Part shown: one piece after another, positions 1-5,028 of the stretch | Layout: each line of letters opens with the position of its first letter | How positions within the stretch are numbered: the first letter of the stretch is position 1 | Assembly: GCA_902773395.1 (NCBI GenBank) | Contig: CACYEJ010000313.1 | Span: 1 to 8,119, forward strand | Direction: 5' to 3' | From: an uncultured Ruminococcus sp. | GTDB lineage: Bacteria > Bacillota_A > Clostridia > Oscillospirales > Acutalibacteraceae | DNA: 8,119 nt | Notes under the pieces: generated by a model | Database searches by the model: none | Told to the model about the DNA's origin: nothing | What the model saw: the letters and a program-made list of their open reading frames with translations, nothing else | Position numbers and translations under genes: made by a program

Positions 1-291
1 GGCAATTCGCAAGCTCTTGCCTGTTTTAGTTTTAATCGAAAGATTATATTTTATGGTGTTTTGATTTTTTTCTTAATTTTCTCTAAAGAAAGTTTATTTA
101 GTTTCGCTGAGGGCAGTTTATTCTTCTACGCTGATTGGGTTTCGTCAGCGACGGGACTCTGCATTAGGAACACCAGCCAATCAGTCTACGCCTGGCAGCT
201 TGACTTCTTGGGGTGTTCCGTCACCCGCAAACTTTTGAAAAAGTTTGATCAAAACTTTTATATGCTAAATCTTTTAAATTTTGAGTATATG
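1..291. repeat. Palindrome-rich non-coding block, probable interspersed repeat
   Basis: I see no credible gene here. The stretch holds several nested inverted repeats: CGCTGA (105-110) with TCAGCG (145-150), CTGATTGG (131-138) with CCAATCAG (177-184), and GGAACACC (167-174) with GGTGTTCC (212-219). AAAAGTTT at 239-246 can pair either with AAACTTTT at 229-236 or with AAACTTTT at 252-259. Read on the minus strand, the last pair forms a hairpin with a 5-nt loop about 33 nt after the aroF stop and is followed by a short T run, so it may act as a weak AT-rich terminator for aroF. GGCAA (1-5) and TTGCC (17-21) form one more small stem. Palindromic blocks with AAAGTTTGATCAAACTTT-like ends are, from memory, common between genes in Clostridia. 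That this is a dispersed family is inference; the inverted repeats are seen directly. Confidence 0.5.
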
Positions 292-1320
292 TTAAATAAT
301 ATCTGCAATTTCAAGAATAAGCTTTTCCGACTTCTCCCAACCTAAGCAAGGATCAGTTATAGATTTTCCATATACCATGTCTGTAACCTTTTGATTGCCG
401 TCCTCAATATAGCTCTCAATCATCATTCCCTTAACTATCTTCTTAATCTCAGGATTCTGATGTATACTGTGAATTACATCGTGGCTTATTCTTATCTGCT
501 CCAAATACTGCTTACCGGAATTTGCATGATTAGTATCAATCACAACCGCCGGATTCAAAAGACCTTTCTCCTTATACGCTGCAATCAGCTCTACAATATC
601 TTCATAGTGATAGTTGGAGATGTTGTGTCCCTGAGAATTTGTCCAGCCCCTCAGAATTGCATGTGCGAGCGGATTACCCTTACTTTCCACTTCCCAGCCT
701 CTGTAGATAAATGTATGACTTCCCTGTGCTGCCTTTACGGAATTAAGCATAATTGAGATATCGCCTCCGGTAGGATTTTTCATACCTACAGGCACATCAA
801 TGCCGCTTGCGGTAAGGCGGTGCTGCTGATTTTCTACCGATCTTGCGCCAACTGCGACGTAAGACAGCAAATCGGAGAGATACCTATAATTATCCGGATA
901 AAGCATTTCGTCCGCACTTGTAAGACCTGTTTCAGCAAGCACACGCATATGAAGCTTTCTGATTTTTGTAACACCTTTAAGCATATCGGAATCGGTAAGA
1001 GGGTCCGGCTGATGAAGCATACCCTTGTAGCCCTCGCCTGTTGTTCTGGGTTTGTTGGTATAAACTCTTGGAATTAGCAGCAGCTTATCCTTAACCTGCT
1101 CCTGCACCTTTGCAAGACGTGTAACATAATCCATTACGGAGCCTTCATAATCGGCAGAACACGGACCGATTACAAGAATAAATTTATCCAACTCTCCGGT
1201 AAATATTTTTTTAATCTCTTCATCTCTTATCTTTTTGACATTAGCCATTTCTTCGGTAACAGGATACTGTTCTTTAATCTCCTGTGGAATAGGCAGTTTT
1301 CTTTTGAATGTGCAGTTCAT
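292..1320 (-). CDS. aroF: 3-deoxy-7-phosphoheptulonate (DAHP) synthase, type I-alpha
   Basis: This enzyme condenses phosphoenolpyruvate with erythrose 4-phosphate to make DAHP, the first step of the shikimate pathway to Phe, Tyr, Trp and chorismate. The 342-residue length fits the E. coli AroF/AroG/AroH class. Visible motifs are IGPCS (51-55), NKPRTT (89-94), GARSVENQQHR (158-168), MKNPTGG (180-186), NHANSGKQ (264-271), ESYIEDGNQ (302-310) and KSITDPCLGWE (319-329). By comparison with AroG, the metal ligands should be C54, H265, E302 and D323, and all are present. The ATG start has a strong AGGAGG Shine-Dalgarno (1332-1327) 6 nt upstream. The gene stands alone behind its own promoter, leader peptide and attenuator, which suggests control by aromatic amino acid supply. 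Members of this class are often feedback-inhibited by one aromatic amino acid; I cannot tell which one here, so the F/G/H letter is arbitrary. Confidence 0.96.
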   Translation of the reverse strand: MNCTFKRKLPIPQEIKEQYPVTEEMANVKKIRDEEIKKIFTGELDKFILVIGPCSADYEGSVMDYVTRLAKVQEQVKDKLLLIPRVYTNKPRTTGEGYKGMLHQPDPLTDSDMLKGVTKIRKLHMRVLAETGLTSADEMLYPDNYRYLSDLLSYVAVGARSVENQQHRLTASGIDVPVGMKNPTGGDISIMLNSVKAAQGSHTFIYRGWEVESKGNPLAHAILRGWTNSQGHNISNYHYEDIVELIAAYKEKGLLNPAVVIDTNHANSGKQYLEQIRISHDVIHSIHQNPEIKKIVKGMMIESYIEDGNQKVTDMVYGKSITDPCLGWEKSEKLILEIADII

Positions 1321-1332
1321 ATTTTTCCTCCT

Positions 1333-1369
1333 AAAAAATACCGATGCTTGCGTGTAACAAACATCGGTA
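1333..1369 (-). terminator. Rho-independent attenuator terminator of aroF
   Basis: In the transcript, TACCGATG (complement of 1369-1362) pairs with CATCGGTA (1346-1339). Beyond one A-C mismatch, TTG pairs with CAA, leaving a 7-nt loop. Six U residues (1338-1333) follow the stem directly. The U run abuts the aroF AGGAGG, so the structure lies between the promoter and the gene and must be overcome for aroF to be expressed. That position, with the competing antiterminator and the aromatic-rich leader frame, marks it as an attenuator and not an end-of-operon terminator. Confidence 0.9.
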
Positions 1370-1421
1370 AAGACTCACAAAATAATGTAAATATAAATCT
1401 ACTTTAACCCTCTGATGTTTG
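1358..1421 (-). promoter_or_regulatory. Antiterminator stem of the aroF leader
   Basis: The leader RNA contains CAAACATC (complement of 1421-1414), perfectly complementary to GATGTTTG (1365-1358). The pairing continues after a 4-nt bulge (AGAG): GGTTAAAG (1409-1402) pairs with CTTTACC (1372-1366) with one bulged U. This 15-bp interrupted helix uses the 5' arm and part of the loop of the terminator, so the two structures exclude each other. The leader stop codon (1406-1404) lies inside the 5' arm. A ribosome reaching the stop would cover that arm and let the terminator form; a ribosome stalled at the Trp/Tyr codons about 40 nt upstream would leave it free. The pairing is read from sequence; the mechanism is inferred from trp-type attenuators. 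Confidence 0.82.
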
Positions 1422-1505
1422 ATGCACGACAAAAGAACCGGAGTAATAATAGCCCCAGCTTGTAAAGTAAAAGTATGAATATGCTGTATTAAAATTCTTA
1501 CTCAT
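1404..1505 (-). CDS. Aromatic-amino-acid-rich leader peptide of aroF
   Basis: A 33-codon frame starts with ATG at 1505 and ends with TAA at 1406-1404. A Shine-Dalgarno-like AAAGGTG (1521-1515) lies 9 nt upstream, and a strong promoter lies just before it. Aromatic residues are F5, Y9, Y11, F12, Y13, F14, W17, Y19, Y20, Y21 and F25: 4 Phe, 6 Tyr and 1 Trp, a third of the peptide. The frame contains sensors for all three end products of the shikimate pathway, matching the role of DAHP synthase as the common entry enzyme. A weak hairpin (CTGGGG at 1458-1453 with CTCCGG at 1443-1438, two wobble pairs) spans the Trp and Tyr codons and might act as a pause structure. The peptide itself probably has no function beyond ribosome positioning. 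I do not recognise a named family for it. Confidence 0.87.
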   Translation of the reverse strand: MSKNFNTAYSYFYFTSWGYYYSGSFVVHQTSEG

Positions 1506-1542
1506 TGCTGCGTACACCTTTCATTGGATTGATTATGATAAC

Positions 1543-1571
1543 AGTATAACAAATAATAACTCAAATGTCAA
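1543..1571 (-). promoter_or_regulatory. Sigma70/SigA promoter of the aroF leader
   Basis: TTGACA (1571-1566), a 17-nt spacer and TATACT (1548-1543) give a near-consensus housekeeping promoter. Transcription should start near 1536, about 30 nt before the leader ATG and about 215 nt before aroF. Three ATAAC words on the plus strand (1538-1542, 1546-1550, 1556-1560) and the inverted pair GATAAC (1537-1542)/GTTATC (1574-1579) lie in and around the promoter. They could be an operator, but this is speculative in AT-rich DNA. Confidence 0.85.
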
Positions 1572-4626: not shown

Positions 4627-5028
4627 TTATTCGATAGGCGGCTCATGAAATTCAGCTATATCTATACCCGAAATATACCTATCCATTTGCTCATCGTCAT
4701 ACTTATTGAGGTCACGAACACCCGAAAGCATCTCCATATGATGTCTTAATTCGTGTGCGAATGTATGGCGGAGCTTCTCAAAAAACTGGGTATTGCTCAA
4801 ATAACCATGCACAATATTAAAGGAACCATAGTAAATCACTATATATCTGCCCGTAAACTCGTTATGATATTCGCCCATAATATACAGCGGACGATTAGGC
4901 AAGCTCTTTGGGTGCAGCTTAGCTTTTTCAGACAGAATAACCCCTCCGCTCAGCTCTCTAAGAAGCTCAGCGGGGGTGTTATCAATAATGCGTTCCAGCA
5001 TTGCGCTTACTTCATCATATGTTTTCAT
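4627..5028 (-). CDS. Small zincin-like metallopeptidase family protein (HExxH)
   Basis: A 133-residue soluble protein with no signal peptide or membrane segment. It has a single HExxH zinc motif, H92-E-L-R-H96, in FAHELRHHMEML, followed by G103 and D106. An upstream block resembles small bacterial 'metallopeptidase family' proteins (Zincin_1/DUF1025-like): a GGVILSEKAKLHP segment (28-40), LYIMGEYH (48-55) and RYIVIYYGSF (61-70). The third zinc ligand is not obvious and the metzincin spacing is not met. No substrate is known to me. The ATG lies 7 nt after the rpoD TGA; the nearest AAGGA is about 20 nt away inside rpoD, so translation is probably coupled to rpoD. Context suggests constitutive low-level expression with the sigma factor. 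The family assignment is from memory of motifs and is less certain than the catalytic motif. Confidence 0.82.
   Translation of the reverse strand: MKTYDEVSAMLERIIDNTPAELLRELSGGVILSEKAKLHPKSLPNRPLYIMGEYHNEFTGRYIVIYYGSFNIVHGYLSNTQFFEKLRHTFAHELRHHMEMLSGVRDLNKYDDEQMDRYISGIDIAEFHEPPIE

What the first reader, a model, noticed from the sequence alone, without database searches (positions are those of the whole stretch)
1404..1505. Unannotated 33-codon leader peptide with 11 Phe/Tyr/Trp residues in front of DAHP synthase
The sequence shows an ATG frame with a Shine-Dalgarno, 4 Phe, 6 Tyr and 1 Trp codons, including Trp-Gly-Tyr-Tyr-Tyr, between a consensus promoter and aroF. It covers all three end products of the pathway that aroF opens. 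Random AT-rich DNA seldom yields such density together with correct signals. Standard gene finders would miss it by size. Leader-peptide attenuation of aromatic genes is classical in proteobacteria (trp, pheA), whereas Gram-positive bacteria are better known for T-box or TRAP control, so a pan-aromatic sensor here would be a less described arrangement.
Basis: partly seen in the sequence, partly recalled or inferred. Interest (0 to 1): 0.88.

Follow-up and report, generated by a model that had tools for sequence, protein, structure and literature searches.

The report
Phe/Tyr leader peptide controlling aroF
A tiny, unannotated gene rich in phenylalanine and tyrosine codons sits before the first gene of aromatic amino-acid synthesis and most likely works as a ribosome-read switch; similar ones precede this enzyme's gene in many related bacteria, a group better known for a different kind of RNA switch.

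Summary
In a folding model, a ribosome at the stop codon lowers the antiterminator probability from 0.80 to 0.01.

Of 19 genus genomes with AroF, 17 carry the leader (15 used in the model, 2 found by it). The YFYF core is in frame, with F/Y exchanges; the Trp block is not conserved. Similar leaders precede the other DAHP synthase subfamily: 35 of 70 upstream regions in the family (0.4 expected), 27 of 63 in the class (0.3 expected).

Phe/Tyr codons are 1.6-3.1x, Trp 0-1.4x expectation: probably a Phe/Tyr sensor, not pan-aromatic. Such control of DAHP synthase is known in C. glutamicum and proposed in Acholeplasma and for E. coli/Shewanella aroF: a new member of a known kind, apparently undescribed and widespread in this bacterial class. 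No expression data.

The parts
1543..1571 (-). sigma-70-type promoter match TTGACA-17-TATACT with TG before -10
   Evidence: 11 of 12; consensus match only, no transcript data
1517..1522 (-). Shine-Dalgarno GAAAGG of the leader ORF
1507..1518 (-). segment 1 (GGUGUACGCAGC), pairs with GUCGUGCAUC after the aromatic codons (1:2 helix)
   Evidence: fold; 1:2 pairing in the best 5% of shuffles in 8 of 16 genus leaders, window included, but only 7 of 47 Bsub-type leaders
1404..1505 (-). leader peptide ORF, 33 codons plus TAA
   Evidence: relatives
1464..1475 (-). conserved Tyr-Phe-Tyr-Phe codons, proposed stall site
   Evidence: YFYF in 15 and YYYF in 1 of 16 model leaders; YFYY and YYYF in the two found later
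1443..1457 (-). second aromatic block Trp-Gly-Tyr-Tyr-Tyr, variable in relatives
1436..1460 (-). hairpin P2 over the second aromatic block; possible RNA polymerase pause hairpin (inference)
   Evidence: a hairpin at this place in 15 of 16 leaders by eye, not in L096; mean z only -1.3
1402..1430 (-). segment 2: GUCGUGCAUCAAACAUC and GGUUAAAG, 5' arm of the antiterminator, overlaps ORF end and stop codon
1358..1372 (-). segment 3: CUUUACCGAUGUUUG, pairs with segment 2 or with segment 4
1333..1369 (-). intrinsic terminator (stem-loop 1369-1339, U tract 1338-1333)
   Evidence: (13 pairs)
1327..1332 (-). Shine-Dalgarno AGGAGG of aroF, directly after the terminator
292..1320 (-). aroF, AroFGH-type DAHP synthase, proposed regulated gene

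Best explanation
A ribosome-mediated transcription attenuator of aroF that reads the supply of charged tRNA-Phe and tRNA-Tyr. Shown by sequence: the promoter match, translatable leader with YFYF core, terminator and competing antiterminator arm. Inferred: when Phe/Tyr-tRNAs are plentiful the ribosome runs to the stop codon, covers segment 2, segment 3 pairs with segment 4 and transcription ends before aroF. When they are scarce it stalls at the YFYF (and YYY) codons, segment 2 stays free, pairs with segment 3 before segment 4 is made, and aroF is transcribed.
For: Leader in 17 of 19 genus genomes with AroF and in 0 of 3 without AroF; two of the 17 (L292, L293) were not used to build the model and keep the aromatic core with F/Y exchanges. 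Core in frame with the ATG in 16 of 16 model leaders, with 10-13 residues before it, while the frame of the segment-2 RNA shifts. F and Y interchange and third bases vary. Terminators: 47 of 50 leader-bearing Bsub-type upstream regions in the family, 36 of 38 in the class sample, 5 of 5 class-2 leaders, against 10 of 69 control loci. Segment 2:3 pairing beats 95% of shuffles in 7 of 16 genus leaders and 18 of 47 family leaders (0.8 and 2.4 expected), and in 7 of 16 and 14 of 47 with another segment cut. Modelled antiterminator higher with a ribosome stalled at the core than at the stop codon in 14 of 16 genus leaders (median 0.69 against 0.04), 34 of 47 family, 15 of 19 and 10 of 17 class leaders.
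Against: No expression, ribosome profiling or termination data. At equilibrium the full-length RNA favours the terminator in every ribosome state for 15 of 16 genus leaders, window included, so the antiterminator must act kinetically. Without any ribosome the antiterminator is also predicted (0.79 in the window), unlike trp as I recall it, so the default state is unclear. The opposite order, antiterminator higher at the stop codon, appears in 2 of 16 genus (L011, L096), 8 of 47 family, 3 of 19 and 3 of 17 class leaders and 4 of 5 class-2 leaders. G009 and G018 have aroF without the leader. SD spacing is long. Leaders outside the genus were picked by a rule (at least 4 or 5 F/Y/W in 6 residues), so their F/Y enrichment is partly built in; the lack of Trp enrichment is not.
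Confidence: 0.85

Rival explanations
1. Pan-aromatic attenuator: the single Trp codon also stalls the ribosome, so Phe, Tyr and Trp are all sensed.
For: W at the WG position in 10 of 18 leaders; 6 of 18 distant class leaders carry W in a [S/N/T/F]W[G/S] context, e.g. L340 YFYFSWGYFYFSTGYF.
Against: Trp codons 1.38x (genus), 0 of 109 codons (class 2), 0.85x, 0.60x, 0.79x expectation; WG replaced by PG/PE with a hairpin kept.
Confidence: 0.12
2. The peptide itself is the sensor: a nascent chain containing YFYF arrests the ribosome in response to free aromatic amino acid (as TnaC does with tryptophan, recalled).
For: YFYF-like core in 18 of 18 leaders of the window's type; C. glutamicum AroR has F-Y-F (PMC4046766 passage).
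Against: Outside the genus the run varies between F and Y (FFFYFF, YFYYYF, YYYYYFFF) and so does its length: a class of codons, not one peptide, is kept.
Confidence: 0.06
3. A structured RNA (riboswitch or protein site) with an incidental ORF.
For: RNA conservation in segment 1, P2 and segment 2; fold z-score -3.6.
Against: In-frame aromatic core in 16 of 16 with SD and start codon; class-2 and Bsub-type leaders share the F/Y run plus terminator but not the window's RNA sequence; no Rfam match to the leader.
Confidence: 0.05
4. Chance ORF without function.
For: None beyond small size.
Against: 3 of 5000 shuffles and presence in 17 of 19 genus genomes with AroF.
Confidence: 0.01

Closest known systems
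Corynebacterium glutamicum aroR leader before aroF (Neshat et al. 2014 itself not read; passages of PMC11802643, PMC4046766, PMC7356990 read)
   Same: Short leader with Phe-Tyr-Phe before a DAHP synthase gene, ribosome-mediated attenuation; reported to respond to Phe limitation, not to Tyr
   Different: Actinobacterium; sequence homology not tested here; the present leaders have longer F/Y runs and occur before two DAHP synthase subfamilies
uORFC-13-1 motif before aroF in Acholeplasma (PMC8632094, passages read)
   Same: uORF with promoter, RBS, Phe codon(s) and terminator before the DAHP synthase gene, predicted attenuation
   Different: 24 representatives, only Acholeplasma and environmental sequences, at least one Phe residue; sequences not compared here
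aroF attenuator sensing Tyr-tRNA, hypothesised for E. coli and listed for a Shewanella aroF prediction (PMC2659441 table and PMC8632094, passages read)
   Same: Attenuation of a DAHP synthase gene by tRNA charging
   Different: Proteobacteria; the passages give no leader peptide sequence for aroF
E. coli pheL (pheA), trpL and the pheST leader (PMC11802643 passage)
   Same: Translated leader, control by supply of the charged tRNA of the coded amino acid
   Different: Other genes, one amino acid each, other phylum
T-box (RF00230)
   Same: Senses tRNA charging (recalled) before amino-acid genes; in the same genus before pheS, alaS, leuA, cysS
   Different: No T-box match in the window; here translation of a peptide is the proposed sensor

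Membership tests
ribosome-mediated (leader peptide) transcription attenuator | short ORF with SD, rich in codons of the pathway's product | tested here: met
ribosome-mediated (leader peptide) transcription attenuator | intrinsic terminator between leader and gene | tested here: met
   for the window; 58, 88 for relatives
ribosome-mediated (leader peptide) transcription attenuator | competing antiterminator whose 5' arm is covered by a ribosome at the stop codon | tested here: met
   window; arm within the footprint in 15 of 16 genus leaders; 2 of 16 do not follow the model
ribosome-mediated (leader peptide) transcription attenuator | read-through rises on starvation for the coded amino acid | not testable with these tools
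   needs reporter or RNA-seq
ribosome-mediated (leader peptide) transcription attenuator | 1:2 (protector) helix excludes the antiterminator | tested here: inconclusive
   1:2 and 2:3 coexist in the window's truncated fold
pan-aromatic sensor | Trp codons enriched and conserved | tested here: not met
T-box (RF00230) | match to the T-box model | tested here: not met
any Rfam family | match of the leader at gathering score | tested here: not met
   window; 20 loci; only two tRNAs found; nothing significant
C. glutamicum aroR leader | sequence homology | not tested
   its sequence was not fetched

The most novel reading that the evidence does not exclude
One old family of Phe/Tyr leader-peptide attenuators spreads over the bacterial class of the window's relatives and guards the entry to aromatic synthesis; it was kept while the DAHP synthase beneath it was exchanged between the Bsub-type and the AroFGH-type (genus of G001: 0 of 22 genomes have Bsub-type, while the same query rings in 131 of 200 family genomes). 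Support: genus leaders beat all their own shuffles against a model of Bsub-type leaders in 11 of 16 and against distant class leaders in 12 of 16, the window in both. Those models were built from leaders picked for F/Y clusters, so convergence on F/Y runs remains the alternative, and gene order gives no support.
Probability: 0.45. Interest if true: 0.72.

Novelty: new member of a known kind. Interest (0 to 1): 0.6.

Why it matters
Amino-acid genes of clostridial bacteria are usually described as T-box or protein controlled (recalled). Here one genus appears to sense Phe charging in two ways, by T-box before pheS and by a translated leader before DAHP synthase. An element this widespread, with no Rfam match and none described in the papers found, would change the annotation of the pathway's first step in many gut and rumen bacteria and allow a direct test of why a lineage uses one tRNA-charging sensor or the other.

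Tried and rejected
Pan-aromatic sensing: rejected as the main reading because Trp is neither conserved nor enriched. Riboswitch or T-box at this place: no Rfam match. In-situ gene swap shown by gene order: not supported; of the loci held only L002 (the same locus again as L082) shares rlmH and mbl with the window. Class-2 leaders (L145, L149, L155, L162, L170): the ribosome model gives the opposite order in 4 of 5; 2:3 pairing is in the best 5% of shuffles in 0 of 5 with one cut and 3 of 5 with another; 1:2 pairing over the SD is strong (5 of 5 below all 200 shuffles). For Bsub-type leaders 1:2 pairing is near chance (7 of 47 in the best 5%). P2 as a conserved hairpin: weak (mean z -1.3); the pause idea rests on recalled consensus. 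Of five weak matches of the leader model outside the genus, L211 and L212 are leaders of Bsub-type DAHP synthase, L214 is a possible leader of another gene, L213 lies inside a 628-aa ORF and L215 looks unrelated. Loci without a leader by the 4-in-6 rule: 20 of 70 Bsub-type in the family, 25 of 63 in the class. Seven of 70 class loci were dropped because the gene start was not found; two peptides in the combined set of 109 occur in more than one locus. One family AroFGH match (G105) was not fetched because it starts at a contig end. L009 and L010 have 210 and 115 nt of upstream sequence.

Full report
What is there. On the minus strand, in order: promoter match 1571-1543, SD 1522-1517, leader ORF 1505-1404, intrinsic terminator 1369-1339 with U tract, SD 1332-1327, aroF 1320-292. 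aroF is an AroFGH-type DAHP synthase. In 5000 dinucleotide shuffles of the 400 nt upstream of aroF, 3 gave an SD-preceded ORF with both the density and the number of aromatics seen.

The switch. CAAACAUC at the end of the ORF is complementary to GAUGUUUG in the 5' arm of the terminator, and GGUUAAAG around the stop codon to CUUUACC at its start. So the RNA can form the terminator or an antiterminator, not both. The ORF's last codons and stop lie on the antiterminator's arm. Folding the transcript up to the terminator loop, the probability of the antiterminator is 0.79 without a ribosome, 0.80 with one stalled at the YFYF codons and 0.01 with one at the stop codon. Over the 16 leaders of this type the medians are 0.69, 0.69 and 0.04; 14 of 16 go the expected way, L011 and L096 do not. 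In the complete RNA at equilibrium the terminator wins in every state for 15 of 16 (L004 is the exception), so the choice must be made during transcription, which I infer.

Conservation in the genus. In the genus of G001 (the genome of L001, 92% identical AroF) 22 genomes were searched: 19 have AroF (G022 partial) and 17 a match to a covariance model built from 16 leaders, 15 of these genomes plus the window, one match each. G009 and G018 have AroF without the leader; G012, G016 and G021 have neither. The matches in G022 and G010 were not in the model; both lie near contig ends, with the AroF hit on another contig, so their link to aroF is inferred. They read SYFYY..NWGFYFSG and SYYYF..KPGYFPA. 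In the 16, YFYF (once YYYF) follows the start codon in frame after 10, 11, 12 or 13 residues, a sign of selection on codons. After it the frame is not kept: the segment-2 RNA is read as QTS or KTS, as SNI, or cut by a stop. So the front is kept as codons and the back as RNA. The WGYYY block is variable; Trp at that place is in 10 of 18.

Beyond the genus. In a family sample, 81 of 200 genomes match AroFGH-type synthase and 131 of 200 the other, Bsub-type, synthase at E <= 0.001, a few weakly (the names type Ialpha and Ibeta are recalled). The 400 nt upstream were scanned for SD-preceded ORFs of 10-60 aa with at least 5 F/Y/W in 6 residues. Hits: 0 of 69 AroFGH loci L012-L080, many of which have the same protein-coding ORF directly upstream; 5 of 78 AroFGH family loci outside the genus (0.0 expected); 35 of 70 Bsub-type family loci (0.4 expected; 50 of 70 at 4 in 6, 3.2 expected). 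The 70 are the best 30 plus 40 further down the list. In a class sample 107 of 148 genomes have Bsub-type; of 70 upstream regions taken, 63 were readable, and 27 of 63 carry a leader (16 of the 30 best, 11 of 33 others; 0.3 expected), 38 of 63 at 4 in 6 (2.6 expected). Examples: MKTNVFAAEYFYFYFIKKI (L235), MKQLFFTAEYYYFYFYFRSKKVFTAKNISQ (L310), and L340 with YFYFSWGYFYFSTGYF, which aligns to the window's YFYFTSWGYYYSGSF.

Terminators and antiterminators elsewhere. A terminator follows 47 of 50 family Bsub-type leaders, 19 of 20 and 17 of 18 class leaders and 5 of 5 class-2 leaders, against 10 of 69 control loci; Bsub-type loci without a leader by this rule have one in 13 of 20 (family) and 11 of 25 (class), some of which may have leaders below the threshold. 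Segment 2:3 pairing is in the best 5% of shuffles in 18 of 47 Bsub-type family leaders (14 of 47 with another cut) and 7 of 16 genus leaders with both cuts. One form of the segment-2 RNA (TTTGCTGC-like) was found in 18 of 109 leaders, in all three frames and after the stop.

What is sensed. Observed over expected codons: genus F 1.56, Y 3.06, W 1.38; class 2 F 1.74, Y 2.30, W 0 against 1.3 expected; Bsub-type family F 2.02, Y 2.31, W 0.85; class sample F 1.94-1.96, Y 1.94-2.28, W 0.60-0.79. The leaders outside the genus were chosen for F/Y/W together, so the sum is biased but the split is not. Hence Phe and Tyr, most likely as a pool; whether Tyr alone acts is open (in C. glutamicum only Phe did, PMC11802643 passage).

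Setting. The genus also uses T-boxes: matches in 22 of 22 genomes (over the cut-off in 18). Of 30 T-box loci, 24 gave a downstream ORF. PheS, AlaS and CysS were confirmed on one example each of these, and LeuA in L005, where a T-box lies between aroF and leuA. So Phe charging is apparently sensed in two ways in one genus.

Known or new. Ten paper searches and the passages read (PMC11802643, PMC7356990, PMC4046766, PMC1262725, PMC8632094, PMC2659441, PMC11878033; no paper read whole) gave C. glutamicum aroR, Acholeplasma uORFC-13-1, and an attenuator hypothesis for aroF of E. coli and Shewanella. None of these passages describes such leaders in Clostridia. The library lacks most subscription papers, so absence is weak. 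Rfam has no match for the window or for the leaders of 20 related loci.

Verdict. A real leader-peptide attenuator of aroF by sequence evidence, very probably reading Phe/Tyr charging; new member of a known kind, part of a wide and apparently uncatalogued set.

Noticed in passing
L246:1-330 and L214 (G044): Short ORF MKNHNIFKNSYYYRFCKGAF with a terminator-like hairpin (AGCCCCTCGGGGCT, T run) before an acyl-CoA ligase gene; a weak model match (E 0.003) that may be a leader of another aromatic-linked gene.
   Followed up: partly
L145, L149, L155, L162, L170: A second kind of leader before AroFGH-type aroF: F/Y run, no Trp, with the leader's own SD region paired to the RNA after the run; the simple ribosome model does not fit 4 of 5.
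   Followed up: partly
L005:1482-1734; L083: A T-box lies between aroF and leuA (LeuA confirmed in L005, by eye in L083), so two different tRNA-charging sensors sit side by side.
   Followed up: partly
L262, L265, L267, L270, L276, L277, L279, L283, L284: Upstream ORFs of another style (RFTGF.YP.YF...F.AC) before Bsub-type DAHP synthase, mostly with fewer F/Y runs but recurrent sequence.
   Followed up: no
L009 and L098 upstream of aroF: Two genus members with aroF but no leader; in L009 a promoter-like sequence sits shortly before the start codon behind short GC-rich repeats.
   Followed up: no
window 4627-5028 (-): 133-aa ORF between murA and rpoD with a HELRHH sequence (metallopeptidase-like, recalled motif) and no Pfam or NCBIfam match.
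   Followed up: no
window 238-259: Imperfect palindrome around TTTGATCAAA just after the end of aroF.
   Followed up: no
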